NCBI GenBank assembly: GCA_001275005.1
Contig: JWZX01002813.1
Coordinates: 1 to 32,385, forward strand
Direction of reading: 5' to 3'
DNA: 32,385 nucleotides
DNA from: Chrysochromulina tobinii
Taxonomy: Eukaryota; Haptophyta; Prymnesiales; Chrysochromulinaceae
Of this stretch, positions 1,587 through 31,155 are shown piece by piece. Every line of letters begins with the position of its first letter. The stretch's first letter is position 1. Both the position numbers and the translations under genes were made by a program. The notes beneath the pieces are model-generated. The model was not told the DNA's origin, made no database searches, and saw nothing but the letters and a program-made list of their open reading frames with translations.

Positions 1587-1922
1587 GGTGTGGCCGCACT
1601 TTGAGTGAGAGAGTTCTCACCTGTCGCCCGCGTTGTGTTGGGCGGATGCTCAGACCGACCCCCCCAGGACCTGGTCATGTACTAAAGACTATTCGATGTG
1701 GAGACGGATGTTAGAGTTTGGAGAGATGTTCGGTCTCTCGAGAACAATCAATGCGCATCGGTCGAGCGTCACCACAAAGGTCGTCGTCTTCATCGGACAT
1801 CATGGCCAGTTGGCCAGTGACCACAGCCATGCAGCATGCACGCACGTGCCATCTGCGCAGCCACTCACGCGCGGGAGACCTGGACGCCGGAGAGGGCGGC
1901 GCATCTCTACGCCGTGGCGCTC
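1587..1922. other. Intergenic spacer, no gene seen
   Basis: Spacer between the 3' end of the carrier gene at 1923 and the hairpin before the p27-like gene; both genes are on the minus strand. Open frames here are short or are antisense continuations of the carrier ORF. No motif recognised. Confidence 0.4.
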
Positions 1923-2971
1923 TCACATCGCCTTCGCCTTCGCCAGATCCTTCTGGCGCTGGTCCCATGCGTCTTGGCCGAGTCGCCAGAGCACGGAGAA
2001 GAGGATGCCCTGGAAGCCGTTGGATATGATCTTCGTCACCAGTCCACGGAAGAGGAGGCCCGACACGCCATCCTTGGCGATCACCATCGAGACAGCCTCG
2101 CCGTACCCGATCGGGGTCGTGCTCGACTGGACCGTCGTCTTGAGCACGCGCACCGAGTTCGAGATCGTGTCAGAGACGGCGCTGCTGCAGAAGCCCACGA
2201 CGGCGTTGCGCGCGAGATACATGGGCAACTCCTTCTTGCGATCATACTTGGGCAGGTAGTCGTTGAGTACGTTGTTGGTGAGGAACCACGGGTAGTGGCC
2301 CACAAAGGTGGCCGACATGGCGCCAATCGAGCCGTGCCAGAGCACAAAGATGCCGTTCGTCCTGATCTTGGCGCCGAGCTTGGCCAGGCCGGTCGAGCCC
2401 TCGACCTGCATGATCGTCTTCATCGCGTCAATAGGCATCAGGAAGACGCGAAACCCCGCAGCTGCCGCCGAGGCGGTGACCGTCTTGGCCGCGGCGGGCG
2501 CATTCTTGGTGACCTCGTACGAATCCCAGATGGCGAGCATGCCCGCGTTCGCGGCCGTGTCGCCCTGCGAAGCACGAGAGGCGACATCAAGCCACCCGGT
2601 GAGTACACAGGAGTTGCAGCTGCGGGCTGTGGCGGTTCGGCATCGCCTGTGTCACTTACGAAGCGCGAGAGCGGGCCCTGGAAGAGCGCTGGGCCGAGGC
2701 CCGCGTAGAAGCGGGGAATACCACCTTCCTTGTACAGGTGCCTGAGGGCTTCCATGGTGCCCATGCCGTACCGATACTGGAAGTTGACCGTGGTGCGCAT
2801 CCACATGAGTGTGCCGACGTTGATGAACATTGCCCCCGCGCCGGCGATACCGCCGCCGGCCGCCTGCCAGGCTGCCTTCTTCAGCGTAACCATCAGTGGC
2901 TGCTGCTCAGCAGGCGCGGGCACGAGCATCGTGCGCTGGAGCGAATGTAGGTGCTGCAAAGGCACTGCCAT
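1923..2971 (-). CDS. Mitochondrial carrier family protein, two exons
   Basis: Exons 2971-2660 and 2564-1923 join in phase 0 across a 95-bp intron with a strong donor (gtaagt) and acceptor (ttcgcag), giving about 317 residues, the usual carrier size. Splicing restores the conserved stretch LSRFGDTAAN across the junction. Signatures: FYAGLGPALFQGPLSRF ends repeat 1; repeat 2 has PIDAMK, fitting the PxDxxK carrier motif, followed by LWHGSIGAMSATFVGHYPWF; repeat 3 carries SNSVRVLKTTVQ and LLFRGLVTKIISNGFQGILF. Repeats 1 and 3 lack a canonical PxDxxK, so this is an atypical member and its substrate cannot be named. The expected site is the mitochondrial inner membrane (family knowledge), exchanging metabolites. 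The start ATG at 2971 is followed by a short non-conserved leader of about 28 residues; MVTLKKA inside it is a possible alternative start. Confidence 0.85.
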
Positions 2972-3363
2972 TTGGACTGCGAGAGCGACTCAACAGTCTG
3001 CTGCGTCACGGAGAGAGTCGAGCGCGAGCTGCGCCCTCACGTTGCGGTTGTGGCGCGGGCACGCTGGAAACGAAGAGCGCAAGGGGTGTGCTCTAGATGC
3101 CGCGTGCATGGATGCGCACCTGTGCTGATGAAGTGTGCCCTTCTTCGCTCGTCAAAAGAAGAGTCATTTTGTGGTCGATCCGGAACTTTTTAGTGGCACT
3201 GCCATGAAAAGCAATTATGGGTCCACATAGAGTCGACGCCGAAGCGGATATTCGTTGTTTCGACACTTGCCGAGTGTGCGAGCCTCGCCCTCCCCGCGCG
3301 CGTTCTCATCGAGCGCGCGTCTCCGATTGCAGCCGCGGCAGCATATCGCAGGAATCGACCTGA
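2972..3363. promoter_or_regulatory. Divergent intergenic region
   Basis: 392 bp between the carrier gene (minus) and the winged-helix-like gene (plus), so it should hold the promoters of both. Short open frames here have no recognisable content. No TATA-like box stands out. Confidence 0.35.
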
Positions 3364-3969
3364 ATGGCGGACGCGAGTAGGCCTCTGCCCAGCACAGCAC
3401 TGACGACGCTGCGTCGGATGCTCAACTCGACCGACAAAAATGCCACAACGTTTGGTGAGCTCCGCGCTGCGCTGGGCGCAAAGTTGGGCGTCGCGGTGCC
3501 ACGCTGGTGGCTCAAGGCTGCGCTGCCCGAGGCAGCAAACACCCCTATAGATGCTCCATACACGGCGGCGCGGCTCGCCAAGGACGCACACCTCGTGGCG
3601 TCCATGTACGAGCCTCGCAGCAGTAAGCGGAGGCGGGCATCCCTGCCGATCGACAGCCAGTCAGTGCCCAATGACGCGACGACGCAACCTTCTGCTCGCA
3701 CATGTACGCCCGAGGTTGGAAGTCTGCTGCGGCACACCTTGGCGTCGTTCCCGTCGCAGCATGGCGCTACACTATCCGAGTTGTGTGCGGCACTTAAGCC
3801 GACGCTGGGGCGCGTCGACCGTGCAGAGATGAAACTAGCACTGCGGGATTGCGCCGAGATCAAAAGGACTCGCCGAGCAGGCGAAGGTGGCGTTGGCGTA
3901 TGGTGTTACATGTTGCGTTTGCGCGCTCCGTCGACAATGGCGGCGGCAGTAGTGACCAACGTCACTTGA
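3364..3969 (+). CDS. Small protein with two winged-helix-like repeats
   Basis: A 201-residue intron-free ORF from an ATG. Two segments resemble each other in spacing and character: residues about 10-55 (LTTLRRMLNS..NATTFGELRAALGAKLG, then WWLKAALPEA) and about 120-180 (VGSLLRHTLASF..GATLSELCAALKPTLG, then EMKLALRDC, ending VGVWCYML). Each reads as helix, TF/SEL helix, recognition-like helix and a closing strand, which is how compact winged-helix or DEK-C-type folds look. A basic patch SSKRRRASLP between them could be a nuclear signal. No family was recognised; the fold is inferred from the pattern. Antisense frames over this stretch are less coherent, so the plus strand is preferred. Confidence 0.5.
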   Translation: MADASRPLPSTALTTLRRMLNSTDKNATTFGELRAALGAKLGVAVPRWWLKAALPEAANTPIDAPYTAARLAKDAHLVASMYEPRSSKRRRASLPIDSQSVPNDATTQPSARTCTPEVGSLLRHTLASFPSQHGATLSELCAALKPTLGRVDRAEMKLALRDCAEIKRTRRAGEGGVGVWCYMLRLRAPSTMAAAVVTNVT

Positions 3970-4516
3970 AAGCACGGCCGAGCAGGAGCACGTGTCGTTC
4001 ACCGGCACGTAATATTCGAAATATCGATAAAAACATAAAATTATTCGTTAACGGGCCGTAAACGGGTCTTGGGACGGCCCGCCCCCGCCGCATAATCGGC
4101 AGACGCGCTGAAGCTTCCAACTATGCGAGCTGCACGGCACCTTCCGAACTACGTATTTCCGAACGGAACCTGCACGACATAACCTCGACGCCGCGTCCCG
4201 ACACACGCCGACACGCGCTCGTGCATGCCTTAACATTTCGTCGGCGGTCGATCGCCCGTTCTCGAAACGGCCGCACGGCTTCGCTCATGCACTACTTACT
4301 AGATGACTTCACGACTGACGACACTCCAGGGGCTGCTGGGGGCCATGGATCCTGCTCATGATAGTCGAGAGTGTCCTGGGTTCGAACCATGCAGTTGCAT
4401 CTCCCTCCAGTCCCATCTCTTGGCCATGATCGCCGTGCACAATTAGAGTCCGTTTTCAGCAGTCCGAGCAGTCCGGAGGCACGTACGCTGCTCCTACCGG
4501 AGTGATCGGGCAGTCT
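3970..4516. other. Gene-free spacer
   Basis: Spacer between a plus-strand gene and the broken 3' end of the ankyrin/UBA gene, so it should be mostly 3' flank. Around 4015-4050 the sequence turns AT-rich with near-palindromes (aatattcgaaatatcgat). The string gggttcgaacc at 4378-4388 resembles a tRNA B box but has no tRNA around it. No gene found. Confidence 0.4.
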
Positions 4517-4867
4517 CTACTGGCGGCGATACTGCAGGTGCCATTGGCAGCAGGCTCGCCCATCCTGGTCTTGCCCTTGCCCGCTGCTGCCACTCGGGGC
4601 GCCTGCCCCGAGGCCTCTGCTGCCCATTCTTCCGGCACTAGCGCCGGCAACGGCGATGGTGCGGATGCCGCCGTTGGCACCACCGCGGCCGCCAGCGCCG
4701 TTGCCCCCATTCGAGCTGCTGTCGCTCGACTCGCCTAGCTCTGCATGCACGATCCAGTCGATTTGGACCTCGAGGCTGCTGTGCGCGGTGGCGGTGGCGG
4801 CCTGGCGCGCGAGCGCCACGTCAAAGCCCATCGCAAGCAAAGCGGCTTCGGTGTGCGAGAATTCCGC

Positions 4868-4933
4868 GCCTGCCGTTCCTGCCGTGCCTGCCGTGCCTGC
4901 CGTGCCTGCCGAGCCTGCCGTGCCTGCTGTGCC
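4868..4933. repeat. 9-bp minisatellite in the UBA fragment
   Basis: About seven copies of gcctgccgt with few substitutions. On the minus strand it encodes the Gly-Thr-Ala run just before the UBA domain, so the 9-bp period keeps the frame. Confidence 0.8.
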
Positions 4934-5026
4934 CGAAGCGCCTTCCGCGCCTGCCGCAACACACGAAGCCGACGTGAAGGGCTTGGCGTGTGGGTTGAGT
5001 ACGAAGCCACTGGCAACGGCGCAGGG

Positions 5027-5035
5027 CTTCGAGGT
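5027..5035. repeat. Target site duplication, left copy
   Basis: cttcgaggt directly abuts the left terminus of the transposon and is repeated exactly at 9764-9772 after the right terminus. Both copies read acctcgaag (Thr-Ser-Lys) in the interrupted host gene. Confidence 0.88.
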
Positions 5036-5143
5036 TACGGCTGCCTATTTGCCATAAACACTGTGTGACAGAGAACAGCTCTTGGCGTGACCTAAAAAAT
5101 TATCGAACGATTGGGTTGGAATCTAGATTTTTTTCTCTGTACC
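5036..5143. repeat. Left terminal inverted repeat
   Basis: Begins tacggctg. It aligns with the reverse complement of 9655-9763 with a few mismatches and small gaps, roughly 85-90 percent by eye. The best-kept block is aaacactgtgtgacagag; a second is the ctagatttttttctct region at the inner end. Similarity stops after about 5143. Confidence 0.9.
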
Positions 5144-5254
5144 ATGAGCTAACGAGAGTGGGGTTGTTCCTATGTAAGTTTTTAATACTTAGGCGATAAG
5201 ACGAAAGAGTATCGTTTTCGGCGGCTTTTTCCATGGCCGTCCTTGGCACTTTTT

Positions 5255-7450
5255 ATGGCTGACGGACGCAAGCGGCCGTGGAAGCCCGTGAAGCGCCGCT
5301 CGGCGTCCACTGGCAGCGGCGGCGACGTCGCCGACGAGGGTATCGAACTGGTCGACCTAAGAGCCGTCCACGACGAGCTCGTCGATGAGCGGCGACTTTT
5401 GATGCAGCCGCTGCAGAGTGAGGGCCTCTACAACATGCACGAGGCCGATGAGAAGGCTCGACTTGCGCGCGACTTGTGGAAGGGCGATTTTTCGGCATCG
5501 ATGCTCCTGCTGCGCGATCAGAACCCGCAGCTCGTCGAGGTGCTGCGGGCAAAGCTGGCCAACTCGTCGGATGCGACACGTTCAAGGGTGGCAGCTGTGG
5601 AGCGGTACATTGACGGTGTGCTGCTCGACTTATGCAGGGCGCAGAACATGTTCAAGATCCCGCTGCTCACCGCGGCTACGAGTCTGATGTGCGAGGTTAA
5701 CAAGACCGCGCGCGAGTACCACGACACTATCTCCGCGTTCCATCTCGGCGCGGCGTGCTCGGAGCGTTGGGTTGACGAGTTCCTGACCCTCGCGAACGCT
5801 TGCCGGCCGGCTCCGACCGAGGCGATGCTCCCGGGCGTGATGGCGTGCTGCTTCGACAACCTGTCGATGAAGATCGACTACAGCTCGTACTCAACCGAGG
5901 GCGAGACAGGCCGTCTGCTCGACATGACCAACTGGTTTTCGACGCAGCTGCCGGCGCACCTCGCGCCAAACTTCGACGCGGCGGCGATCTGTGCGCGCCG
6001 CGCCGCCCCCCCGCATCCCTGACCTGCTACTGATGACATGCGTGTGTGTGCCGGCATCGTGGCAGTTCATGATGGTCCCTTCGCACGCCTCTCGCTCCGC
6101 GACTTTGGCAGTTTATTTTATTCGGATAATCCAGATATTGTTGCGAATAAGACAGCGCGATGGATTCGGTTTTTGAATGCTGAACGCAATGGGCGCTTAC
6201 TTGATCGCCCTGCGTATGTGGCAGAGTGGCAACCACACAAGGTTTATCATGAACCTATGTACGGTGTGCTCCAATCATCGTACCAAGACGTGGAATTAGA
6301 GCTCCGAGTCATGTGTGGTCGACCGGCCGTGTGTGGCACCCCTCCGGCCCCTTATACGGACCATGACCCAGACTACCCAACCAAATTCAGATCGTGCAAG
6401 ATAATGTTTGTGGCTGGAGATGGACTGGCACTGATGCGACTCAACCACTTACTGGCAAACAAGCCTGATGTGTATATTGACCAGACCCCGTTGATTATTC
6501 CTATTCAGGGTGAGCATCCACATGGGCTTTTTCATGTCATGCATTGCGAGTGGCGCCTGCACCGCCAATTTATAATGTGGTGCGCTGGCGAGGTGAACAA
6601 CCAGCAGGTGATCGATGACCCAAATGTTTCCGTCTTCAATGAGCATCGATTTTTTTACCTCCATGTGCTTACCCGTGCGTGTGCACAATATATTATATTC
6701 ATCTCGAAGACCGCGGGGGCGGAGACTCTTGATGAGCCGATTGCTTTTTTGGCCAAGTCAGAGGCCAACATTGATTTTGCATGGGTTTGTCATTTCTTAT
6801 ACGATGCAGGGTTTTTCGTGCTCGATTTTTTGCAGTCAGTCCGTGCAAATCGCAGTCATACGCTTGATTTACTCTGGCGGGAATTCTTTGCGTCTGCGCA
6901 CAGTGGCACAGCCAATAAAACGCAGTATGTGCCTATGTCAATCATGCGAGTATTTTGGGGTATGGCCCTCACCCCTGAGCTCAGCAAGCTGTACCATAGA
7001 ATCCGTACTTTGCCCGGTGGTTTGGGGGCGGTCGGGTGGGATATGGCAGTGGAGATGCTCAATGCAGCGATCAAGGCACACGTCGCACACAGAGTCAGCG
7101 AGGCTCAGATCAATAGGTTCATTCGTAGCTGGGCACTCTTGGAATGTGTGCAGAAGAAGATGCGCGAATTCATCTATCCCGGGCGGAGTGCGCGCCAAGT
7201 TCCAAATTTGGCAGATGCGAACAGGGATGTTGCGCGCCTTGTTGAGCGCTTCAAGGCTGTCATTGGTACTACCTGGGCTCAAGCTGTGCGACCGAATCAG
7301 ACCAGCCATGTCACCACTGGAGCTCAGCGCCTCATGGTACCATGGCGCGAGGTCGCAGCTGTCATGAACCGGACGGGCGCGGAGGCTCCTGCAACGTACG
7401 TGCGCAACCATGTGACCCCCCTCACTCCCTTTTTTACCTGGGACCCATGA
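5255..7450 (+). CDS. Transposase, DUF6589/KDZ-like, two exons
   Basis: Exons 5255-5990 and 6066-7450 join across a 75-bp GT-AG intron (donor gtgcgc, acceptor tggcag, with a ctgac branch-like site), giving 706 residues. Without splicing the first frame stops at 6020. The start is the ATG at 5255; the frame remains open upstream only to a TTG at 5243. Motifs: a D-N pair at Asp201 (CFDNLSMKIDYSSY), then GDG with Asp364 (VAGDGLALMRLNHLL), then IPIQGEHPHGLFHVMH around His402. This order of DN, GD and a Pro-Gly-His block is what I know from the DUF6589 family of RNase H-like transposases related to Kyakuja/Dileera/Zisupton elements. The third acidic residue was not identified. Exon 2 is visibly less GC-rich than exon 1 and the host DNA. 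The element context makes transposase the natural role; the family call is tentative. Confidence 0.65.
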
Positions 7451-7732
7451 GTAGAGTTCCGATTATCGGAGATTATAATAGATCCCATCCTTTAAATATA
7501 TTTTTTGTATAAGTCGCTTCCCAGTGCACAAGGGAGGTACCGCAAGACGGAGAAACGCAAACGGAACAACTTAATTATATTTACGGGCGGCCGGCGGCGT
7601 CTGTGCTGCTCCCCAGAGTATTACTAGAGTATTACTGAGGTGAGTGTGGATAAGATGTGGATAAGATTGTGGAAAGAGGGATAGGGTGGTGTTAATAAAC
7701 ACCGGGGTAAAATGAGTAAAACCGAAGTATGA
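7451..7732. other. Convergent 3' spacer inside the transposon
   Basis: 282 bp between the two element stop codons, markedly AT-rich (cctttaaatatattttttgt near 7490). It holds small direct repeats such as agagtattact (7614-7624 and 7626-7636) and gtggataagat (7648-7658 and 7659-7669). It should supply polyadenylation signals for both convergent transcripts. Confidence 0.5.
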
Positions 7733-9554
7733 TCAGTGGCACTCGAAAAATAGATCGAGTGCCACTGGTGTCGCCGCCGCCCCTGCACCGGGCGTCATCT
7801 CGGCTGCGCCTGCGCTCGTCGTGCGCACACCCTCAGCGCGCTTGAGCATGAGCAAGCCCGCCTGCATCTTGGCTTGGAGGACCGCGATCTGGATGTCCTT
7901 ATCCGTTGAGGCCTTGAGCTCCTGGTACTTCTGCTCGACCTCGTTGGCCTTTTTTTCCGCGGCAGCCGCTTTCGCCTCCGCGGCAGCCTTGTCCTTCGTG
8001 AGCGCGTCGACCTTGGCCTTGAGCGTGGGGTGCTCCTGGATCATGCGCACCTGCTCTGGCGTCAGCTTCACACCTGCCAACACGCCAGGCAACCACACAC
8101 GAGGCACGCACGCTGGATGAGGAATCAATTCGGGAATATAAATATTCCGTCGGATGTGGGCATGGCGCGCAGGAGCACACCGTCAACCTTGGGCTTCTTG
8201 TTCGGGTCGACCGGTGCCGCTGCGCCTGGCAGCTGGTCCGGCTTGCGCTTGTTGAGCGCCCCTGGCGGGCGCCCACGGCCACCTTTGGCAGGTGGTGGTG
8301 GTGGTGGTGGTGGCTCGCCGCCTGGCGCGGCTGCAGGCGCGGCGGCCGTCGCCGCGGCGCCAGGTGGTGGTGGCTCGCCTGGCGCGGCTGCAGGCGCGGC
8401 GGCCGTCGCCGCGGCGCCAGGCGCGGCGACCGCCGCGGCAGCGGGTGCGGGGCGGCGCAGCCTCCCGTTGCCTGCAGCCGCCGCAGCGGCAGCAGCAGCA
8501 TCGGCGTCATCAGTGCGCGCGCGCGTCAGGAGCTCGCGCACGGGTGTGATCTTCGTGATGGCGTGCTCGCCCGAGCCAAGATCAGCCACAGCCGCCTCGA
8601 GCGCCGCCATCAGCAGCGGCGCAAACTCATCAGTCCTGCCAGCATGTGCGCGACGAAGCGAAGTGAGAATAAAATCGGAATATATTTCGGAGGCAATCAT
8701 GCGCGCGTGTGCGGCTCTCTCGCACGTGCGTGGGGATGGGCGGGCGCACACCGGAGCTCCTCCATCACCTTCGCCACCATCTCGGCCGTGGGCTTGCCTG
8801 TCGAGAGGTCAACGGGCACCTCGATGATGCGCTCGCGCAGCGGCTCGCCGTAGAAATTATTCACGCTGAGCATCGCCTTGGTCACGAGCGCCCAGCGCGC
8901 ACCTGCCTGTGTGCCGCCGGCGGCCGACTCGCCTGCATCTCGTGCGCGCGCCCCGCGCCCCGCCGCCGTCACTCGCTCGGCCTTCTCCATCTCGAGGAGG
9001 ACCTTCTTGATGGCCACCTCGTAGCCCTTGTCGACCCACCCCTTCAGGTTCTTGGTGTTTCGGATGCCAAGAACCTTGAACATGCCGAGGTGCGAGATCA
9101 GCACGTCCGCGTAGTCGCGTAGCTTGTCGGTCTCGGTGTCGACGAGCACCGAGAGCGACTCGAGGTTGGGGTCCGGGAACTTGAAGGACTGCAGCCACTT
9201 GTTCTCGTCAAGAAGCGCATTGGCAGCAGGCCGCGACTGCATCATCTCCTTGAGCTTCTCGACCGTCACGCCGTAGAGGTAGGTCGCGCCGGTGTTGGAT
9301 ATCTTGGTGGCGACGATCACCGCGTCGAACTCCTTGAACTTGGCAATGAGCGGCTCGCCCGAAGTGACCGCCACCTCCTTGCCAAAGTGGAAGTAGTGGC
9401 CGGGCACGCCGGCGTTGTAGGTGAGCTTCTGCACAACCGAGGCGACGTTGGCGCAGATAATCGCCGGCTCCTCGAGGTCGTTGGTAATCGCGAGCGGCGC
9501 CGCCTTGTTCGGGATGAGCACGCGGCCGTCGGTGACGAGGTTCAAGGCCGCCAT
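7733..9554 (-). CDS. Transposon accessory protein, AT-hook and coiled coil, three exons
   Basis: Exons 9554-8752, 8635-8181 and 8073-7733 join across two GT-AG introns of 116 and 107 bp, giving 532 residues. Both junctions keep the frame (Leu-Arg-Thr-Asp and Val-Asp-Gly-Val-Lys), both acceptors end tggcag, and both introns contain short strings similar to their exon edges. Residues 1-200 form a mixed alpha/beta region I do not recognise (VLIPNKAAPLAITNDLEEPAIICANV at its start, shown here only in part: NKAAPLAITNDLEEP). Next come Ala/Pro-rich repeats, an eight-proline run, and an AT-hook-like KGGRGRPPGALNKRK at about residue 385. The final exon is a Lys/Ala/Glu coiled coil of about 60 residues. 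DNA binding and oligomerisation are inferred from these. It starts 209 bp inside the right end of the element and converges on the transposase. Confidence 0.68.
8291..8421. repeat. GGT microsatellite and 57-bp tandem duplication
   Basis: Seven GGT units (8291-8311) encode the proline run of the accessory protein. They are followed by a 57-bp direct repeat: copy 1 at 8321-8377, copy 2 matching for 44 bp at 8378-8421. The duplication encodes Gly-Ala-Ala-Ala-Thr-Ala-Ala-Ala-Pro units. Confidence 0.8.
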
Positions 9555-9654
9555 GTACTGGTCTCGTTATACGCGTGACAATGAGCTATTGTTAGGCGGG
9601 ATTGTATAATTCGGGATTAAGACCGCGTCTATGTACTACTTTCCTCATATGTAA

Positions 9655-9763
9655 GGTGTAGAGAAAAAAATCTAGTTTTCAACCCAATCGTCGATATTTT
9701 TTTACTGTCACGCCTAGAGCTGTTCTCTGTCACACAGTGTTTGATGGCAAATCCTCAGCCGTA
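9655..9763. repeat. Right terminal inverted repeat
   Basis: Reverse complement begins tacggctg and matches 5036-5143. Its outermost bases supply the last codons (Tyr-Gly-stop) now read at the end of the truncated ankyrin ORF. Confidence 0.9.
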
Positions 9764-12355
9764 CTTCGAGGTCAGGCTGAGCCCAGACAAGCCAGAGGCA
9801 CTCGCGCTGAGGGCTTTGGTCGAGGGCGAGGCTGACAGCGCCGCCTCCACTATCTCCCTCTCCCCAAGCAATTGCTCCATCGAGCTCGGTCCGGACATGA
9901 TATTCGGTGGCGGCTGGGGCGAAGCCTTGGGCGACGAGCGCGAGCCGCCCATGGGCGAGCCGCCCGTGGGCGAGGGCGGCTCATGACGACCGATCGCGTA
10001 GACCTCACTGGAGACGGAGGTGGAGGCGGTGGGCGATGTCCCGGATGAGGTTGATGAGACGCGGTCGTCCTCGTCGTGCGTCCATTTGCGTCCCTTGCGC
10101 CGGTTCGGGCTCTCGACCACATTCCACGCGCTGCCAGCATCGCCCTCGCCTCGATGGCCCACTGGAGGTGCAGCGTCGAGCCACGCCCACTCCGTATGCG
10201 ACGAGCTGCCGAGCGCCATAGGGCCGGGCTCCATCACACTGTGTGGCGAGCGCGGTGCCGCAACCGGCTTATTGTGGCCGATGATCTGGCCGACGGAGAC
10301 AGCGCCCGCTCGAGCTTTTCGTTCAGCCAAGGCGGGCTGCGTGGGCGGTTGTGTGGGGTTGCTCACCTTTGGCCGTGCAAGCGCCCGTGCAAGCGCCCTG
10401 GCCATGCTACGCAGCCGCCGGCCCACCCAGCGCAGCAGCTGCCCCCCCTGGAGCAGCACGCCCACTACGACGCCCAGCACGGCGGTGAGAGCTGCACCAC
10501 GGATCACCGTAGGGTCATGCCAGCTCGGGGGGCTCGAGAGGGCGCCGCCCGAGACGACGCCCGCGCGAGCGCGAGCGCTCGACACGGGCTCAAACGGCGC
10601 TGCTTCGAAGGGCATCGCGCCGGTCCCAGGCCGAGGTGCGCTCGCGTGGCTACCAATGGCACCTGGAGTAGCGCCGGATGCGCCGGCGGCCGTCGCGGCG
10701 CTGGTCGTGGTGGCGGAGGCATCCGGCGCAGAGTTCCGGAGACCCGCCTTGATTACTTTGATGAGGCGACGGGTAACGGCGACGTGGTGCGTGCCGATCG
10801 GCGGCCCGAGCGCGCGCATGGCGAGGCCGTTGACCTTCTCGAGCGCCTCCCTCGCCAGATCGAGTGCGCTCAGCCCTTGCCAGCACACATGCGGATCTGC
10901 ACCCGCGCGGAGCAACTCCTTGACAACCTCCGAGTGCCCAGCCCACGAGGCGAGCATCAGGGCGCTCATCCCGGGGACGCGCCGTCCTGCAAATGTTGGC
11001 TGCTGGAGGGCCGCGGGCGAGGCCGCCACAAGCGGCGCCACGAGCTCCGCGTGTCCACGCCACGCCGCCAGGTGCAGCGCATTCATCCCGACCATTGCGC
11101 CCGAATGTGCTATCGCTGTTACACGTGCTATCGCTGTTACACTCGCTTTGGCGCTGAGGAGCACTTGGGTAGCCTCAGCGTGCCCGTTGGCGAGCGCGAG
11201 CAGGAGCGCCGTTGCACCGTCCAGAGGTGAGCGAGCATCCGCCTGCGCGCCCGCCCCGAGCAGGCGCTTGAGTGCGGGCAGCAGATTGTGTGCGCTTGCC
11301 AGCTGGAGCGCCGAGCGAGCGGGCGCACCGCTGTCCACGCTTGTGGCCAGATTCCCTATCAGCTCGTGGAGCTTCGATGGCACGGCGGCTGCCTCGCCCG
11401 AGGCCAGCGGAGGGACGCCCAGAAGCGCCTCGACCACCTCACGAGCCAGCCTGGCGGCGCGGCTCACCCGCACACGACGCTCCTCGGACGCCTCCCGAGC
11501 ATGAGGAGCACTCGCCTCGTTCGTCGGCGAGATGCCGTCGGAGCTTTCTTCCGAGAGGACGGCCCCCGTGGCCGAAGGCCGCAGCTCCTGTTGGGTCATC
11601 GATGCGAGCGTGAGCTGCTCGTGCAAGGCAAAGAGCTGCCCGACGGGCATGTCGATGGGCCCGGGCGGCACGCAACGGGGGGGCAAGGCCGAGAGCGCCG
11701 GCAACGGAGGGAGTGGCGGCAAGTCGGCGCATCGCTTGGCAATAGGCGGGGAGGCTGGTGTGGGGACAGACCGAGAGTCCATTTCCGCGTGGTCTTTAGC
11801 GGCGGGTGCGGAGTCGTGCACACTGCCAACTGCGCCGGCCTGCACCAACGCCTCCACCACGCCCACGTGGCACTGCTGCACCGCGAGCGAGAGGATGCTC
11901 ACGCACGAGCCCGGCAGGAGGTTGGGGTCGGCACCCCCGGCGAGGAGCAGGCGCACGATGTGCGCGTGCCCCCGGTTGGTGGCCGCTGAGAGCGCGCTAT
12001 CTCCAAGAACGTCTTGCGCATTCACGTCGGCTCCGGCAGCCAGAAGGACGGTCACCGACTCCTCAAGACCGGATGTGGCTGCCGCCATGAGCGCCGTTTG
12101 CCCGTCAGCGTCACGAAGGTTGGGGTCGGCTCCAGAGGTTAACAGAGCGCGCAACACCGCGACACGCCTACGCGAAGCGGCCAACATTAGGCTTGTTGAC
12201 CACGGGTGCGACTCGATTCTTTCGTCACCGCGGGCCTCGCCAGAACGGATCAGACGGAGAACCTCATCAACTTTCCCGAGCGCCGCTGCTTCGGTGATGA
12301 GGCGGGCGGATGAGAAGGTGAGAAGGCCGGCGAGGAGGGCATACATAAGGCGCAT
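9755..12355 (-). CDS. Ankyrin-repeat membrane protein, truncated by transposon
   Basis: A 866-residue ORF from the ATG at 12355; an in-frame TAG precedes it at 12364-12362, so no longer start exists without an upstream exon. Residues 1-18 are hydrophobic (MRLMYALLAGLLTFSSA) and could be a signal peptide or anchor. Ankyrin repeats occur in two clusters, about 20-190 (for example GQTALMAAATSGLEESVTVL) and about 343-505 (for example GMNALHLAAWRGHAELVAPL). A single transmembrane-like segment follows near 619-637 (ALTAVLGVVVGVLL) with a basic stretch after it. The last two residues and the stop come from the transposon's terminal repeat. Before insertion the frame continued into the UBA segment at 5035-4517, giving about 1033 residues. 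Ankyrins mediate protein binding; with a membrane anchor and UBA tail, a ubiquitin-linked membrane adaptor is plausible but inferred. Confidence 0.8.
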   Translation of the reverse strand: MRLMYALLAGLLTFSSARLITEAAALGKVDEVLRLIRSGEARGDERIESHPWSTSLMLAASRRRVAVLRALLTSGADPNLRDADGQTALMAAATSGLEESVTVLLAAGADVNAQDVLGDSALSAATNRGHAHIVRLLLAGGADPNLLPGSCVSILSLAVQQCHVGVVEALVQAGAVGSVHDSAPAAKDHAEMDSRSVPTPASPPIAKRCADLPPLPPLPALSALPPRCVPPGPIDMPVGQLFALHEQLTLASMTQQELRPSATGAVLSEESSDGISPTNEASAPHAREASEERRVRVSRAARLAREVVEALLGVPPLASGEAAAVPSKLHELIGNLATSVDSGAPARSALQLASAHNLLPALKRLLGAGAQADARSPLDGATALLLALANGHAEATQVLLSAKASVTAIARVTAIAHSGAMVGMNALHLAAWRGHAELVAPLVAASPAALQQPTFAGRRVPGMSALMLASWAGHSEVVKELLRAGADPHVCWQGLSALDLAREALEKVNGLAMRALGPPIGTHHVAVTRRLIKVIKAGLRNSAPDASATTTSAATAAGASGATPGAIGSHASAPRPGTGAMPFEAAPFEPVSSARARAGVVSGGALSSPPSWHDPTVIRGAALTAVLGVVVGVLLQGGQLLRWVGRRLRSMARALARALARPKVSNPTQPPTQPALAERKARAGAVSVGQIIGHNKPVAAPRSPHSVMEPGPMALGSSSHTEWAWLDAAPPVGHRGEGDAGSAWNVVESPNRRKGRKWTHDEDDRVSSTSSGTSPTASTSVSSEVYAIGRHEPPSPTGGSPMGGSRSSPKASPQPPPNIMSGPSSMEQLLGEREIVEAALSASPSTKALSASASGLSGLSLTSKYG
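9764..9772. repeat. Target site duplication, right copy
   Basis: cttcgaggt, identical to 5027-5035 and immediately outside the right terminal inverted repeat. Confidence 0.88.
11107..11142. repeat. 18-bp perfect tandem duplication in the ankyrin gene
   Basis: gtgctatcgctgttacac occurs twice back to back. On the coding strand it duplicates Val-Thr-Ala-Ile-Ala-Arg/His inside the second ankyrin cluster (about residues 404-416), adding six residues to one repeat without breaking the frame. Confidence 0.9.
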
Positions 12356-12650
12356 CTCCACCTAGCTAGGGGCTCCGTCTCAGGCTCGTCGCCCGGGCTC
12401 GTGCAGCACCCTCACCACGAAGGCCCCTACCAAGCCTGTTCCGTGAGCGGGGGGGAATCGGTGCTTACGGTCGGGAAGGCCGACAGGAAGTTTCGAATTG
12501 ACGAAATGAAATGAATTTTCAAGAAATGCGTTGGAAGAATACGGGGTGGGGAAGTATGCGTTTGGAAAAAAATCCCGTTGAAACACATACATGTAACAAG
12601 TGTTCACACGTTGAGCAAAATTCCTCAGCGGGACCTCGAAACGAATTTCG
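12356..12650. promoter_or_regulatory. Divergent promoter region with TACATGTA palindrome
   Basis: 295 bp between the ankyrin gene (minus) and the Sfi1-like gene (plus). The right half is AT-richer than its surroundings and holds the palindrome TACATGTA at 12588-12595, 56 bases upstream of the plus-strand ATG. The same 8-mer recurs at four other places in the window. Confidence 0.35.
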
Positions 12651-24417: not shown

Positions 24418-25010
24418 TGCGTTGCGAGCTGCCCGACGGGAATCGCATGGCACACGGTGTGGCAGTGGGTCAGCAAAGCCATCTCATGCGGCACGATCAC
24501 CACCTCCTCGCTTGTCACTACGATCAACGAACACCGCCAAACAGCCAAATGTGTACTCTCTACATTAAGGCTGTGTACATGTATTCTCAAACTCTTCACG
24601 TTCTTGTGTGCCACCACAATTCGAAATGAGCTCACTGACCAGACATGTTCTACCTGAGTACGTCCGGTCGTAGGGGGGTCAACGAACAATCAACGAACCG
24701 CCCCTCGCCACAGGGGGCGAGTTCTAGGTATGGTCGCCCGCCTAACCCTTAAGCCCTAACCCCCCGGCCTCGTACATGTACCGGGTAGCTCGTTTGCGTT
24801 TCTCGTAAGATAGACAGTCCGGTGAGACCATGAAAAAAGACAACTTTTATACCTGAGTACTTTACATCGCTCTTCGCATAGGATATTTCAGCGAAAAGTT
24901 GTGCGCAATCAGTGCGCAATCAGGTAATAAGAAGCTTTTTACCGGTACAAAACTTGCCAGAACTTAGCCACTGGCTGTCGTGTGATCGCTCGGCTCGCGG
25001 TAAATCGCCC
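24418..25010. other. Intergenic region upstream of the kinase gene
   Basis: No convincing gene. Contents seen: TACATGTA at 24576-24583 and again at 24773-24780; a telomere-like stretch around 24740-24763 (two CCTAACCC-type units); an 11-bp perfect tandem repeat gtgcgcaatca at 24901-24922 followed directly by ggtaataag, which resembles a splice donor. The 150 bases before the kinase are AT-rich and probably contain its promoter. Confidence 0.45.
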
Positions 25011-25958
25011 ATGCTGGCTGCGCAGCGCTCTTTCAAGGCATCGTACGACGTGCTCATGTGTGACACTAAGAAGAGCAGCGCCCCGCCCCGCAATCCAACG
25101 ATGAAAGAGAAGGACTACACCGAGGTCAAACGGATCGGAAAGGGCTCTTTTGGCATGGCGATGCTCGTGCTCCGAGAGGAGACTCGGGAGCATTTTGTGG
25201 CAAAATACATGAAGTTCAAAACGTTGGAAAAGGAGCAAAAGGAGTTCATGCTCAGAGAGGTCCAGACAATGCATCACATTAGCTGCCAAGGTAGCCATCC
25301 TTACATTGTCCAATTCCGCGAGTCCTTCGTTACATCCTCAGGGCTGCTGTGCATCATCATGGACTATTGTGACAGCAGCGACATGGCCCACCTGATCGCG
25401 ACACAAAAGAAGCGAAGCGTCCCCTTCACCGAGGAGCAGGTGCACCTCTGGCTTCTGCAGCTTCTGAGCGCCCTCAACTTTCTGCACTCGTGCGACATCC
25501 TCCACCGAGACATAAAGCCAGCAAATGTCTTTATGAACGCGGGATGCTGCAAGCTCGCCGACTTTGGCCTTTCGAAACAGGTTCTGACAGCCTACGGAGG
25601 CAGGCAGGCGCACACTCAATGCGGTAGCCCGCTGTATCTTGCGCCAGAGGTGCACATGGGCCGCAAATATGACAGGGCTGTCGACATATGGTCGCTTGGC
25701 TGCACGCTCTTCGAAATCATGATGCTCTCGCACGCCTTCGTGGGCGCCGACAATGCCGAGATCTTGAAGAACATCGCCTGGGGGCGCCATGCCCCGATCG
25801 CAGGCTCCTGGTCGAACGAACTCAAGGCTATTCTCAAGGGGATGCTTGTCCTTAAAGCGAGTGACCGCCCTTCTGCTCTCGATGTCGATGCATCAGCCCA
25901 TGTTTGCTCCAGCGCTCCACGCCAACAGCCTGCACCCGGAGGCGCTTGCTCACGTTGA
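25011..25958 (+). CDS. NEK-like Ser/Thr protein kinase
   Basis: A 315-residue ORF from the first ATG in frame; a second candidate start lies just before KEKDYTEVKRIG. All main kinase elements are present: glycine loop GKGSFG, VAIK-type lysine in HFVAKYM, catalytic HRDIKPANVF, Mg-binding DFGLSK, APE as YLAPEVHMG, and DIWSLGC. The hinge region and the LLQLLSALNFLHSCDILHRD stretch fit NIMA-related (NEK) kinases, which act in mitosis, centrosome and cilium control (family knowledge). The C-terminal lobe reaches ASDRPSALDV and then the frame leaves conserved sequence. The continuation is found one frame over from 25888 (see next entry), implying a single-base insertion near 25887. The presence of an Sfi1-like gene in the same window is suggestive of shared basal body biology, but is only coincidence of location. 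Confidence 0.88.
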   Translation: MLAAQRSFKASYDVLMCDTKKSSAPPRNPTMKEKDYTEVKRIGKGSFGMAMLVLREETREHFVAKYMKFKTLEKEQKEFMLREVQTMHHISCQGSHPYIVQFRESFVTSSGLLCIIMDYCDSSDMAHLIATQKKRSVPFTEEQVHLWLLQLLSALNFLHSCDILHRDIKPANVFMNAGCCKLADFGLSKQVLTAYGGRQAHTQCGSPLYLAPEVHMGRKYDRAVDIWSLGCTLFEIMMLSHAFVGADNAEILKNIAWGRHAPIAGSWSNELKAILKGMLVLKASDRPSALDVDASAHVCSSAPRQQPAPGGACSR

Positions 25959-26130
25959 TGTAAAGGAGCGGCCAGGCATGACAACGAGGACTCCTGCCAT
26001 CGACTGTGCTGCCTTGCAAGCTGACTTAGAGGGAAACCTCGGCACACTCCAGGCCATACTCGAGAAGCAGGCCATCCTCGAGAAGCAGGCGCATGACACG
26101 CTTCGGCGCGCAAATGAAAAGCTCATGTGA
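25888..26130 (+). other. Kinase C-terminal tail in the +1 frame
   Basis: Reading from 25888 gives MHQPMFAPALHANSL, which fits the expected end of a kinase domain directly after RPSALDV. A coiled-coil tail follows (GNLGTLQAILEKQAILEKQA) and a stop at 26128-26130. An 18-bp near-tandem repeat at about 26059-26090 duplicates Ala-Ile-Leu-Glu-Lys-Gln. The coherent content suggests this is the true C terminus and that one extra base separates the two frames. Confidence 0.6.
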
Positions 26131-26948
26131 CAAGTGGAAGTGACAACTGCCATAGCGCGCTTGCATTGAAAGAGCAGCTCCCCGCGCCGCAGACCGTGCG
26201 AGCAGGTCGAGGTGTGCGGCGCTATTCGTTTCGATTTCCCCCCGCACGTGTTCCAGAGCGACAGCGATCAGCGTCTGTCCTTCCCGCGGAGACAGTCCCG
26301 GACGCCCGGCGGGACGCGACGGGAAGTCGCCTCCGCCGCCGATACGCCGCCGAGCCCGATGCCCGACAAGCTTACAACGCGGTCGACATCGTCAATCGTC
26401 TCGATATCGAGCCACTAGCGATCTACTGGCGATCGTACGGGGTACACATGCGATACACATGCGAACGAGGATCGCGTGCCCCGGATCGCGCAGTGGCTCG
26501 GCCGGGGCGGGAAGGACAAGGAGCGGCCGCGGTGCGTCGTAGCCGGTCGGGTACGGTCTATCGTCGAGGACGAGGCTGCCGTACACGCGATAGTCGAAAT
26601 ATTTTCTTTCGACTAGTAACACGTAATCGTCATGCCTCTTCACGTGCCGCGGTGCAAGATCGCGAAAGATGCACCCACCCCACCGCCCGACGTCGACGAC
26701 GGGACCCCCGCGACGAGCGTCGCGGCTCCAACCATACAGCTCTAGCCGTCATAGAATACCGGATACCGCGCACACTGGGTGAATTTGCTGCCTTCAGTGC
26801 TGCCTTCGAACCTTCGTGCCGCTGGGTATACTCGGCACGACCACGCGCCTTGGTCCCATCACCCGCCCACACTCATCTACGCTCCACACGGAAGCGGCAG
26901 CATCATGGCAGCCATCATAGCGCACCCATCTGTGGTCCACTGCCCTGC
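26131..26948. other. Convergent intergenic region
   Basis: 818 bp between the 3' ends of the kinase tail and the glycyl-tRNA synthetase. A long plus-strand open frame crosses it but is Arg-rich, has no domain and continues antisense into the synthetase, so it is not accepted as a gene. Contains a tandem tgcgatacaca-type repeat at about 26446-26463 and a 9-bp hairpin at 26591-26615. Confidence 0.45.
26591..26615. repeat. Perfect 9-bp hairpin
   Basis: tagtcgaaa (26591-26599) pairs with tttcgacta (26607-26615) around a 7-base T-rich loop. Role unknown. Confidence 0.5.
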
Positions 26949-29110
26949 TCACATCTTCTGCAACGCAGCCACCAGGAATGCGATGGGGTCATCGGGCTTC
27001 TCCTTTCCGAGCGCGTTGACCGCCGCATTCAGCTTCGCGGTGAGGCCGTGCTGGGCGAAGTACTCAAGCATCCCCGAGGCGCCCCCTGCTGGAGCCGCGG
27101 GTGTGGCAGCCGGTAGGCTGCCTGTGCCGTAGGCAGCCATCAGGTCGGCGAACGTGAGCGGATGAGCAGTGCTGAGCTTGGTCAGAGTGTCGGCGACGTC
27201 GGTGAGCGGCAGCCGCACCTGGCTCGTCGAGTCGCGATCGCGCAGCGTCACAGTGCCCGCTTTGCTCGGATCGTCGCTCTTGCCGAGGGTATCGAAGTCG
27301 ATGGTGACGGCGTATGGGATGCCGAGCTCGTCAGCCCGCGCGTATCGGCGGCCGATCGAAGCGCCCGACTCGTCGACCTTATACTGCAGCCCGTTATCGG
27401 TGAGTTTGGTGCGCAGGGTGTCGAGTGCCGCGGCATACGCGGTCGCATTGTCCTTGATCAAGTTGAGTTGGATCGGAAGGATGACCGCCTTGTAGGGGGC
27501 GATCTCGGCCGGGAAGCCGAGCACGTTCGGCTTTTGCTTGTCGTCGCTGCCCTCCTCCTTGCCCTTCTTCTTCTTCTTGCCATCATCCGTCGGCGGTGCG
27601 GATGCCGCCGCCGCGTCGCCGCCCTCGGCTTCGCGCGTGTAGAACGTGTGCTCAAAGATGGCCGCCATGATACGGTCGATCCCGAATGAGGGTTCGACCA
27701 CATTCGGGACGAAGACCTCGACGTGCTTCGTCTCGGTCTTGGACTCGCACTCCAGCAGCTCCTTGCTCAGCGAGAAGTCCTCGCCGTCCACGCTCACCGT
27801 CGCCGCGCCGTCCGCCTCAGCCTTGGCCACGAGGGCCTTGAGCGTGGCCTCATCGAGGCCTTGCAAGTACTCCTTCACCTTGGGTCCAGCTCCCTTGAGC
27901 TGCTTCCCAATGAGACCCTCCGCTTTCTTGGTGAGCGCGTACGACTCGATCGTGATCGGCTTGTCCAGGTCGACCTGCGCAGTCAGCGACGTCTTCGTCG
28001 CCTTGCCGTGGCACGTCAGGTCGTACGCCGAGCGGTCCGCAATGCCAACGCACTCGACCCAGCCAAGACTCATCTCGATCTCAGCGTCCCAGCAGTCCGC
28101 GGCGTAGTGGGCCATCTCGTCGGGCAGGTGCTGACGGAAGCGAATGTGCTCGGCCAGGCACCCCGCGCGCACCAGGAACAGGAACGTCCTTGCGATGAAG
28201 TAGCCGAGGGTCCCGTTGGCGATCGTGCGTTGAGCCACCGCCTCGCCCAGTGTCATGGTCACGGTACCCTCGCCCGCGAGCTGCTGCTGATGCGGATGCA
28301 ATTGCATCGCAAGGGACGCGACGCCCGCAAACTTGGGGTGCGGCTTGTCGCCCGGCTTGCAGAAGAACTCGATCTCCGCCTGCGTGAACTCGCGCTGCCG
28401 GATCAGACCGCCACGCGGCGCAATCTCGTTCCGAAAAGCCTTGCCGATCTGCGCCACGCCAAATGGGATCTGGCCGGCGTTCTGCTCGAGGCAGAACTTG
28501 AAGTTGAGGAAGATGCCCTGCGCCGTCTCGGGGCGCAAGAAACCCTGGAGCATGCCCGACGGGCCGATGGGCGTCGGGAACATCAGGTTGAACGCAACAG
28601 GCTCAGTCAGGTCATTCCCCGTGTCCGGCGACTTGATCTGATACTTTTGGAAGACAACCCACAGCTCGTCCTTGGAATATGCGTCGGCCTGATTCTTCAC
28701 CCTCTGATACTCCTGCTTAAGCTCGGGCGTCGTCTCCTTCGCCGCCATCCTGGCGTCCATCACATCCTCGAGCAACTTGTCGGCGCGGAAGAAGATGTTC
28801 GGGTCCTTCGAATCCTTGACGATGAAGTCGCTGAAGCGATCGACGTGACCCGAGGTTTTCAGTACGTCGTAGGGCATGATGTTGGTGTCATCCACCTCGA
28901 GCAGATTCTCCTCAACGATGAAGTGCTTGCGCCAGAGCGCGATCAGATTCTGCTTCACGGCGGCACCAGGCGGCCCATAGGTCCAGAAGCCGCCGACGCC
29001 GCCATAAATCTCGAAAGCCTGGCGAAAGAGAAGCGCCGCTTGATCAGGTCGTCCAGGTCCGGTTTCGACGTCGCGAACTTCAGCGAGCCCTCCGAAGCGG
29101 TGATCGGCAT
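26949..29110 (-). CDS. Glycyl-tRNA synthetase, eukaryotic type, with one apparent frameshift
   Basis: Class II synthetase charging tRNA-Gly. From the ATG at 29110 the frame reads DLDDLIKRRF and then leaves the conserved sequence; one frame over it resumes as QAFEIYGGVGGF, TYGPPG and ALWRKHFIVEENLLEVD. One missing base near 29020-29030 explains this; with it the product would be about 720 residues. Core motifs: VLKTSGHVDRFSDF, motif 2 as FRNEIAPRGGLIRQREF with AEIEFF, motif 3 as VVEPSFGIDRIMAAIFEH. The anticodon-binding domain follows (IAPYKAVILPIQLN, GASIGRRYARADELGIPYAV, GTVTLRDRDS). The insert between motif 3 and this domain is Lys-rich. There is no N-terminal WHEP domain or obvious targeting peptide. 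The last ~40 residues (MLEYFAQHGLTAKLNAAVNA, then KPDDPIAFL) form a Dpy-30/RIIa-like helical motif not usual in this enzyme. Confidence 0.93.
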
Positions 29111-29592
29111 GCTTTCGTGTCGATTACAAAGCCGAGGTCCAGACACCTCAGTGCACGTGGCCGTTTTGACGAGCGCCCGGTCGAGCGCCCTAAAATTGTA
29201 TGTCACAAGTCATCCCAAGTCATCCCGTTACTTCTCACCTACTCGTTCTCCGAGGGCACGTATGCCAGCACTTATGACGTGTCACCTAATTTTGGATCCC
29301 CCTTCGCCATCTCCATCGACTCCCGTCCTGGTGTCCTCCCACCTGCATGCTGCGCTTCCTAGCTCAGAGCCGCTTTCGATACGATAGCCACCGATATGCT
29401 TCCGTATGGTTGTCTGTTGTTTATGTATAGACTTGACTTGACCCTAACTTGACCCAATCACAAAAATCTCAAACCGGCCGCTCTGAAAACTGCACGAACT
29501 CGCTGAACGCACAATTCCAAACTTAGAGTTCTGAGACAGACCCCGACTGCTCACCGCTCCGCCCCGCCGCGCGCGCGTTTCTCGCGCGCACG
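29111..29592. promoter_or_regulatory. Region upstream of the synthetase gene
   Basis: 482 bp between the synthetase start (minus) and the 3' end of the phosphatase gene (minus). It should hold the synthetase promoter. Short direct repeats are visible: aagtcatccc twice at about 29206-29225, and acttgac-type units at about 29430-29456. No gene recognised. Confidence 0.4.
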
Positions 29593-31155
29593 TCATAGTG
29601 CCTTGCCCTTGACGTGCAGGAGCTCGGTACCGCGTGTGGCTGCCCTGCCCGCTGGCATGCCGCCGCGTCGCAGCATCTGCTGCGGCACCCGCCGACGCCA
29701 GAGCGCTGCGCACACGACCATGGCCCAGCCCACCACAAAGCCACCGCCGATAGCCACGAGCCAGCGGTACTTGGCGGCTGCCTCCAAGACGCTCGGCATG
29801 GCAAGCGCGTGCTCCCAGCGGAGAGCCTCTGCCTCTGGAGGCAGCCCCAGCGGCAGACGGTGCTGCATGACCGTGGTGCCGTTGACGTTGTGGATGCGCA
29901 CGAGCAAGTGCGGTGCTCCCGCGCCCGCGCCCGCGGAGAGCAGCTCCGAGTCGCCGTCCTCACTCGACTCGGCATGACCATCAAAGCGCGCTACTACTGA
30001 TCCGAAGTTGAGCGCGGGAAAGCTCGCGCCGAGGGGCCAACTGTCGGTGCCCCCGGGCGGATGCAGCCGGTGGCTCCCAAAGAGGCGTAGCGCCGCCTGG
30101 CACGCGACCCATCCGAACAGCTTGTCGCCGCACGAGTGCGTCAGCCCTGAAGAGGTGACTTCGAACAGACCAGCACCCTCGGGGAGCATCGGCGCAGAGA
30201 CCGAGGTGGCTGTTGCCGGCACGGCCGACCCGAGTCGAGCCGACGCAGATGAGGCAAACGTGCCCAGGAATTCGGCATAGTGCACGTCGCCCGAGATCAG
30301 CAGAGCGGCGGGCGGTCGTGTCCTGGCGAGCAGGCGAAGCAGCCGGCGGCGGCTGTTTGGGAAGTGGCCCCACGACTCCACAGGCGCGTTCGTCGTGAGC
30401 ACCTGCACCGATGAGACGATCAGGTGCGCCGCAGCGGTCGAATTGGTGAGTTCCTGCTCGAGCCACTCCCACTGCTCCTGGCTGCCCAACAGGTCCTCGG
30501 TGCTGCCGATTCCGAGGAGCGCGCACAGGGCGCGCAGTATGCCTGCGATGTTGCCCGGGCTTGGCAACCACGTGACGGCACCCACGGACGGCAGCGCTGG
30601 CTCGCCGCGCGCAAAACGGGTATCGAGTAGCAGCAGCTTGAGCTGGTGCGGCGGCTCACCAAAAGTGCGCATCCCGTAAAGGCCACCACTCTGTGTGCGC
30701 CGAGGAGAATCTGCTGGAGCGCCGACGACCTCATCGAGGAAGAGTTGGCGTGAGAGCTCACGTAGCTCGAAGGAGCCGCCAGCATCATTCTCGCCGTAGT
30801 CGTGGTCATCGTATACGCCGTCGATGATCGGCACGGCGGCGCGCAGCTTCCGTTCGCCATCCGTTGCTGCGGCCTCCAAATAGCTTGCCTTCAGTGCCGC
30901 AGCTATGTCGCCGGCGAGTCGCGCCTTGGGCTTGAAGTACAGGTAGTCGCCCGTCCAGACCCATGCGTCGGGTCTCTGGCGCGCGATCGCGTTGAAGATT
31001 GGCTGCGGCAACACCTGTTTGCGGCACGAGCCGAAAGCGATGGTCGCCGACGGCATCGCGGCGGCGCTTTTCGCGTCCAGACCGCACTCCTGTGGATTCA
31101 GGATGTCTCGGAGCGGATTACATGTAACGCGCCGTGAATCTCGAAAGCGATGCAT
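29593..31155 (-). CDS. PhoD-like metallophosphatase with C-terminal membrane anchor
   Basis: A 520-residue intron-free ORF from an ATG at 31155. PhoD/alkaline phosphatase D signatures occur in order: IAFGSCRKQ near residue 40, WTGDYLYFK, YDDHDYGEND, LLLLDTRF, and LISGDVHYAEF near residue 290. These Asp, His and Asn residues bind the metal ions (Ca/Fe in characterised PhoD; other members are metallophosphatases with unclear substrates). A single hydrophobic helix near residue 470 (WLVAIGGGFVVGWAMVVCAA) is followed by a basic tail, so the enzyme is likely membrane-anchored by its C terminus. No clear signal peptide is present, though the N-terminal ~33 residues are non-conserved and MPSATIAFGSC offers an alternative start. 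Phosphoester hydrolysis is expected; the substrate is unknown. Confidence 0.85.
   Translation of the reverse strand: MHRFRDSRRVTCNPLRDILNPQECGLDAKSAAAMPSATIAFGSCRKQVLPQPIFNAIARQRPDAWVWTGDYLYFKPKARLAGDIAAALKASYLEAAATDGERKLRAAVPIIDGVYDDHDYGENDAGGSFELRELSRQLFLDEVVGAPADSPRRTQSGGLYGMRTFGEPPHQLKLLLLDTRFARGEPALPSVGAVTWLPSPGNIAGILRALCALLGIGSTEDLLGSQEQWEWLEQELTNSTAAAHLIVSSVQVLTTNAPVESWGHFPNSRRRLLRLLARTRPPAALLISGDVHYAEFLGTFASSASARLGSAVPATATSVSAPMLPEGAGLFEVTSSGLTHSCGDKLFGWVACQAALRLFGSHRLHPPGGTDSWPLGASFPALNFGSVVARFDGHAESSEDGDSELLSAGAGAGAPHLLVRIHNVNGTTVMQHRLPLGLPPEAEALRWEHALAMPSVLEAAAKYRWLVAIGGGFVVGWAMVVCAALWRRRVPQQMLRRGGMPAGRAATRGTELLHVKGKAL
31119..31126. promoter_or_regulatory. TACATGTA palindrome near the phosphatase start
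   Basis: Extends to the 10-mer TTACATGTAA at 31118-31127. It lies inside the annotated N-terminal codons of the phosphatase, but would be upstream if translation begins at the internal MPSATIAFG. One of five copies in the window. Confidence 0.3.

What the first reader, a model, noticed from the sequence alone, without database searches (positions are those of the whole stretch)
5036..9763. Complete transposon with MuDR layout but a non-MURA transposase
Seen: 4728 bp, ~108-bp inverted repeats beginning TACGGCTG, perfect 9-bp duplication, two spliced genes starting 219 and 209 bp from opposite ends and converging. Known: maize MuDR is of similar size, has long terminal repeats, 9-bp duplications and convergent mudrA/mudrB. 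Inferred: the transposase motifs (DN at 201, GDG at 364, PHG-FH near 402) point to the DUF6589/KDZ group rather than MURA, so a Mutator-style architecture may have arisen, or been kept, in a different transposase lineage with an unknown partner protein.
Basis: partly seen in the sequence, partly recalled or inferred. Interest (0 to 1): 0.88.

Follow-up and report, generated by a model that had tools for sequence, protein, structure and literature searches.

The report
Two-gene transposon with DUF6589-like transposase
A complete jumping gene in a microbial eukaryote carries an unusual cut-and-paste enzyme from a poorly studied family plus a second gene of unknown function, and a distant cousin with the same layout sits elsewhere in the same genome.

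The parts
5027..5035 (.). left copy of the 9-bp target-site duplication CTTCGAGGT (preceded by AGGG)
5036..5138 (+). left terminal inverted repeat, starts TACGGCTG
   Evidence: 90% identical to the right end
5255..5990 (+). gene A (transposase) exon 1; holds D201
5991..6065 (+). gene A intron, 75 nt, GT..AG, phase 1
6066..7450 (+). gene A exon 2, to the stop; holds D364 and E575
7733..8073 (-). gene B (partner) exon 3, coiled-coil-like end and stop
7734..7767 (.). perfect 13-bp hairpin (8-nt loop) overlapping the end and stop codon of gene B; possible 3'-end signal (inferred)
   Evidence: fold; no Rfam family matched in the window
8074..8180 (-). gene B intron 2 (model only)
8181..8635 (-). 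gene B exon 2: Ala/Pro-rich linker and AT-hook-like KGGRGRPPG (about 8260-8289; motif name recalled)
8636..8751 (-). gene B intron 1
   Evidence: 5 of 7 partner homologs run on past the exon end at this site
8752..9554 (-). gene B exon 1: conserved N-terminal region of about 267 aa
9660..9763 (-). right terminal inverted repeat, ends CAGCCGTA
9764..9772 (.). right copy of the 9-bp duplication CTTCGAGGT
9764..12361 (-). 5' part of the interrupted host frame (ankyrin repeats)
4517..5035 (-). 3' part of the interrupted host frame (UBA-like matches below cut-off)

Best explanation
The element is an intact-looking, probably autonomous cut-and-paste DNA transposon. Gene A encodes an RNase H-fold DDE transposase of a DUF6589-like lineage. 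It would recognise the ~100-bp inverted ends, cut them at TACGG..CCGTA, and join them to target DNA with a 9-bp stagger, so repair leaves a 9-bp direct duplication, preferably at AGGGCTTCGA-like sites. Gene B would be an accessory DNA-binding protein (AT-hook-like motif, C-terminal coiled coil) that helps the transposase at ends or target, or protects the element from silencing, as a functional analogue rather than a relative of MURB. Shown by sequence: ends, duplication, clean empty site, gene structures, conserved acidic triad, predicted fold, a second element with the same anatomy. Inferred: catalysis, cut-and-paste (not copy-paste), autonomy, target preference (two sites only), and the whole role of gene B.
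Against: The ends and both genes are found only once in this assembly, so mobility cannot be shown from same-family copies. The window protein has no Pfam hit, and the whole-genome DUF6589 search found only contig 975, below cut-off on its exon alone (19.3 bits), not the window's gene. The contig-900 exons have no Pfam DUF6589 match at E <= 1 and only a 35% hhalign probability to the gene A profile. At contig 900 the joined host frame is not cleanly restored (469 codons, 38 after the join). Foldseek gave no PDB match at E <= 0.001. The P-element alignment has rmsd 8 A, so a family tie is not shown. The target pattern was chosen after seeing the two sites. Partner model unusable (pLDDT 42). No transcript or mobility data.
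Confidence: 0.85

Rival explanations
1. It is an ordinary Mutator-like (MULE/MuDR) element whose transposase has diverged too far for profile detection.
Against: No MULE match among the families listed for 39 members at E <= 10, while 13 match DUF6589. The whole genome has no MULE (PF10551) match at E <= 0.001. ISCth4 ranks below P element and Hermes, though Foldseek ranks it second.
Confidence: 0.07
2. It is a KDZ (Kyakuja/Dileera/Zisupton) element, as the reader half suggests.
For: Eukaryotic element with long inverted ends and an extra gene. KDZ1-3 of a fungus carry 139-241-bp inverted ends (PMC12810828 passages).
Against: No KDZ profile among the families listed for 39 members. Published duplications are 7-8 bp, and Kyakuja families lack inverted ends (PMC12730594 passages), or 4-8 bp; here 9 bp twice.
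Confidence: 0.04
3. Gene B is a passenger (a captured or unrelated gene), not a transposition factor.
For: No homology between gene B and the contig-900 opposite-strand frames (hhalign probability 0.1 and 0.3). Gene capture by transposons is common (recalled). Fewer homologs (7) than gene A (38).
Against: Both elements carry convergent frames with an Ala-rich, basic stretch and a coiled-coil-like end. Gene B is conserved at 63-94% across 5 near-complete exon-1 homologs.
Confidence: 0.4
4. Gene A is a domesticated or decayed relic and the element no longer moves.
For: Single copy; the ends differ at about 10% of sites.
Against: Both genes open, triad intact, duplication perfect, host frame restored exactly.
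Confidence: 0.15

Closest known systems
Pfam PF20231 (DUF6589, family of unknown function)
   Same: Weak match in 13 of 39 gene A family members; a distant same-genome paralog, spliced, matches over the cut-off (32.5 vs 27 bits) and aligns to the gene A family over 560 columns, hhalign E 9e-9.
   Different: The window protein itself has no hit and the genome-wide profile search missed it. The library names no function. No paper in the held library contains the word DUF6589.
Maize MuDR / Mutator-like elements
   Same: Long inverted ends, 9-bp duplication, transposase plus an opposite-strand second gene (PMC9168764 passages; MuDR size recalled).
   Different: No MULE domain match; partner has no Pfam match above cut-off. 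Not compared with MURB directly.
P element transposase (PDB 6p5a, 6pe2)
   Different: rmsd 8 A, 10% identity; the 8-bp duplication and THAP domain of P elements (recalled) are not seen here.
KDZ transposons
   Same: Eukaryotic elements, some with long inverted ends.
   Different: No KDZ profile match; published duplications 7-8 or 4-8 bp.
IS3EU
   Same: Termini TAYGG..CCRTA (PMC12730594) fit TACGG..CCGTA here; its TET+ families have transposase and alpha-kinase genes in opposite orientations.
   Different: 6-bp duplications against 9 bp; no rve (integrase) match; the contig-900 sister starts TACCC.

Membership tests
DDE cut-and-paste DNA transposon | terminal inverted repeats with a target-site duplication | tested here: met
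   second element
DDE cut-and-paste DNA transposon | RNase H-like fold in the transposase | tested here: met
DDE cut-and-paste DNA transposon | conserved D, D, E triad | tested here: met
   22/22, 38/38, 34/35 rows with letters; catalysis itself not tested
DDE cut-and-paste DNA transposon | excision and reinsertion | not testable with these tools
   empty site is inferred from the host frame only
Pfam DUF6589 | score over the curated cut-off | tested here: not met
   window protein no hit and not found by the genome-wide profile search; 13 of 39 members match weakly, best E 4.8e-4, the ones scored below cut-off; paralog L007 over cut-off
Pfam DUF6589 | remote homology to a protein over the cut-off | tested here: met
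   hhalign of the gene A profile to the L007 protein, probability 95.7, E 9e-9
Mutator-like element (MULE/MuDR) | MULE-type transposase domain | tested here: not met
Mutator-like element (MULE/MuDR) | long inverted ends and 7-12-bp duplication | tested here: met
   range from PMC9168764
KDZ | KDZ transposase core domain | tested here: not met
   absent from the 11 families listed for 39 members at E <= 10
KDZ | duplication of about 7-8 bp | tested here: not met
   9 bp at both elements
P element | P-element transposase fold | tested here: inconclusive
P element | THAP DNA-binding domain (recalled) | tested here: not met
   no such Pfam match
IS3EU | 6-bp duplication | tested here: not met
   9 bp
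IS3EU | IS3/integrase-like transposase (Pfam name rve recalled) | tested here: not met
   no rve match

The most novel reading that the evidence does not exclude
DUF6589-type proteins, a Pfam family of unknown function, are transposases of a separate superfamily of eukaryotic DNA transposons with TAC..GTA ends, 9-bp duplications, a convergent second gene recruited more than once, and a target preference for AGGGCTTCGA in coding DNA.
Probability: 0.5. Interest if true: 0.75.

Novelty: new variant of a known kind. Interest (0 to 1): 0.62.

Why it matters
It gives a family annotated only as 'family of unknown function' a link to two delimited elements: ends, duplications, gene layout and a predicted DDE fold. 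It adds a case of the Mutator-like two-gene architecture outside Mutator, which turns the old question of what a second transposon gene (MURB) is for into a comparative one. The shared 10-bp target at two distantly related insertions, if it holds, would be an unusually strong target preference that can be tested directly.

Tried and rejected
Viral origin: no confirmed relatives in viral contigs, phages or, at E <= 0.001, the viral structure library. Prokaryotic genome contigs, query P0002: none confirmed. PDB sequence search: one chance-level hit, a kinesin at E 0.53, for gene A and none for gene B. NCBIfam: nothing for two gene A homologs; for two gene B homologs only one match at E 0.09. Partner fold: the model is not interpretable, so not searched. 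End-derived short copies: pattern TACGGCTGNNNATTTGCC with 2 mismatches gave 54 hits in the genome against 56 for the reversed control, so hits other than the window's two are at chance level. Inverted ends for the contig-975 paralog (L007): none found, its contig stops 0.7 kb after the gene; a TACCCC start 161 bp before its ATG is unproven and does not align with the contig-900 ends. The contig-900 partner frame has one weak genome match elsewhere (contig 1828, 32%, E 0.017), not followed. Excision footprint: beside the contig-900 element a 9-bp direct repeat with a 2-nt spacer (L045 8121-8140) lies where leaving out 11 nt lengthens the joined host frame from 469 to 628 codons; 47 repeat positions of this type (spacer 0-4) occur in that stretch, mostly low-complexity, and 37 (spacer 1-4) in the window, so I keep it as a hint only. 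Host identity: 63% GC and 53 Mb recall Chrysochromulina (C. tobin: 59 Mb, 3,472 contigs, 63.4% GC, PMC4580454 passages), but the assembly numbers differ; not claimed. DUF6589 occurs in 0 papers of the held library; Repbase could not be searched. Searches were search listings; of the papers listed there I saw passages of five and the whole text of none.

Full report
The element. Window 5036-9763 is bounded by inverted ends that align over 103/104 bp at 90% identity, with CTTCGAGGT directly outside both. In the window, 1 of 27,639 9-mer pairs at that spacing match exactly, namely the duplication. The element interrupts a reading frame on the minus strand: with the flanks joined over one copy of the duplication, a 1035-codon frame is open, 863 codons before and 172 after the join. 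The first part is an ankyrin-repeat protein; the tail has UBA-like matches below cut-off. This is the anatomy of a clean insertion, not a chance pairing of repeats.

The genes. Gene A (5255-7450, one 75-nt intron, 706 aa) and gene B (9554-7733, minus, two modelled introns, 532 aa) converge. Gene A has 38 homologs in the public protein set, none with a precomputed Pfam domain. Of the 21 that cover the splice junction by my threshold, 15 join there with 1-5 residues and 6 read through with 23-40 residues; 17 do not cover it. Gene B has 7 homologs with a profile query. Five of them (P0039-P0043) run past the same exon end with the residues CA, which in the window come from the intron. P0045 departs earlier, and P0044 is 99% identical over about half the query and then runs into a different sequence labelled TPR by its source, so I dropped P0044 from the partner model alignment (6 of 7 homologs kept). 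Gene B carries an AT-hook-like KGGRGRPPG (recalled motif) and a coiled-coil-like end. It has no Pfam match above cut-off. No genomic context was available for the database homologs, so linkage of A and B outside this window is untested.

A second element. The contig-975 protein finds a relative on contig 900 (41%) and a broken one on contig 405 (43%, one stop); the contig-900 protein finds the same set. Contig 900 (locus L045) holds, at 1700-8114, a 6415-bp element with ~95-bp inverted ends TACCC..GGGTA and a perfect 9-bp duplication CTTCGACGA; 1 of 3,566 pairs at that spacing in L045 match, the duplication. Its transposase exon aligns to the gene A profile at hhalign E 4e-4, but with a probability of only 35%, and its two exon frames have no Pfam DUF6589 match at E <= 1; its tie to DUF6589 runs through contig 975. 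Downstream on the other strand lie two long frames (573 and 575 codons, one stop between them; no gene model made); the nearer has a basic, Ala-rich stretch and a coiled-coil-like end. Neither is detectably related to gene B (hhalign probabilities 0.1 and 0.3). The host frame before this element is 431 codons long but runs only 38 codons past the simple join, so this insertion is less clean than the window's. No inverted ends were found for contigs 975 and 405, where the genes lie close to a contig end. So two of the four related loci found in this genome have demonstrable ends, and both have 9-bp duplications.

Target. Both insertions sit in AGGG-CTTCGA, the duplication starting at CTTCGA. 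AGGGCTTCGANNNTAC occurs at exactly 2 places in the 53 Mb assembly, these two; the reversed control gave 1. The pattern was chosen from the two sites, so this shows rarity, not independent confirmation.

Mechanism. Most likely cut-and-paste: gene A binds the ends, cuts at TAC..GTA and joins with a 9-bp stagger. Gene B is probably an accessory DNA-binding or anti-silencing factor; I give a mere passenger 0.4. Shown: anatomy, conservation, fold prediction. Inferred: all biochemistry.

Known relatives and novelty. The layout resembles MuDR, but opposite-strand second genes unrelated to mudrB also occur in other MULEs (PMC9168764, passages), so layout is weak evidence of ancestry. KDZ elements make 7-8-bp (PMC12730594, passages) or 4-8-bp duplications (PMC12810828, passages). 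IS3EU shares TAYGG..CCRTA ends but makes 6-bp duplications. The word DUF6589 is in no paper of the held library, which is not proof that the lineage is undescribed: Repbase and subscription journals were not searchable. I rate it a new variant of a known kind.

Against my reading. Single copy of this family; window protein itself without a Pfam hit; remote DUF6589 tie; fold matches of moderate strength; contig-900 host frame not cleanly restored; no transcripts; partner function unknown.

Noticed in passing
window 7734-7767: Perfect 13-bp hairpin spanning the last codons and stop of gene B; could be an RNA 3'-end signal.
   Followed up: partly
L045 (contig 900) 8121-8140: Nine-base direct repeat with a 2-nt spacer just outside the second element; leaving out 11 nt lengthens the joined host frame to 628 codons. 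Looks like an excision footprint, but similar repeats are common in that stretch.
   Followed up: partly
L045 (contig 900) 186-214 and 9836-9864: A 29-bp perfect inverted repeat starting TAGGGTGGCC surrounds the second element at about 9.7 kb spacing; possibly another mobile element.
   Followed up: no
L007 (contig 975) 3186-5389: Intact-looking spliced DUF6589 paralog (705 aa) near a contig end, over the Pfam cut-off.
   Followed up: partly
protein P0044: Partner homolog 99% identical to gene B over about half the query, then a sequence its source names TPR; probably a chimeric contig or a capture event.
   Followed up: no
window 24912-31155: Neighbouring frames match protein kinase (24912-25958), class II tRNA synthetase with anticodon-binding domain (26949-28958, minus) and PhoD-like phosphatase (29593-31155, minus).
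   Followed up: partly
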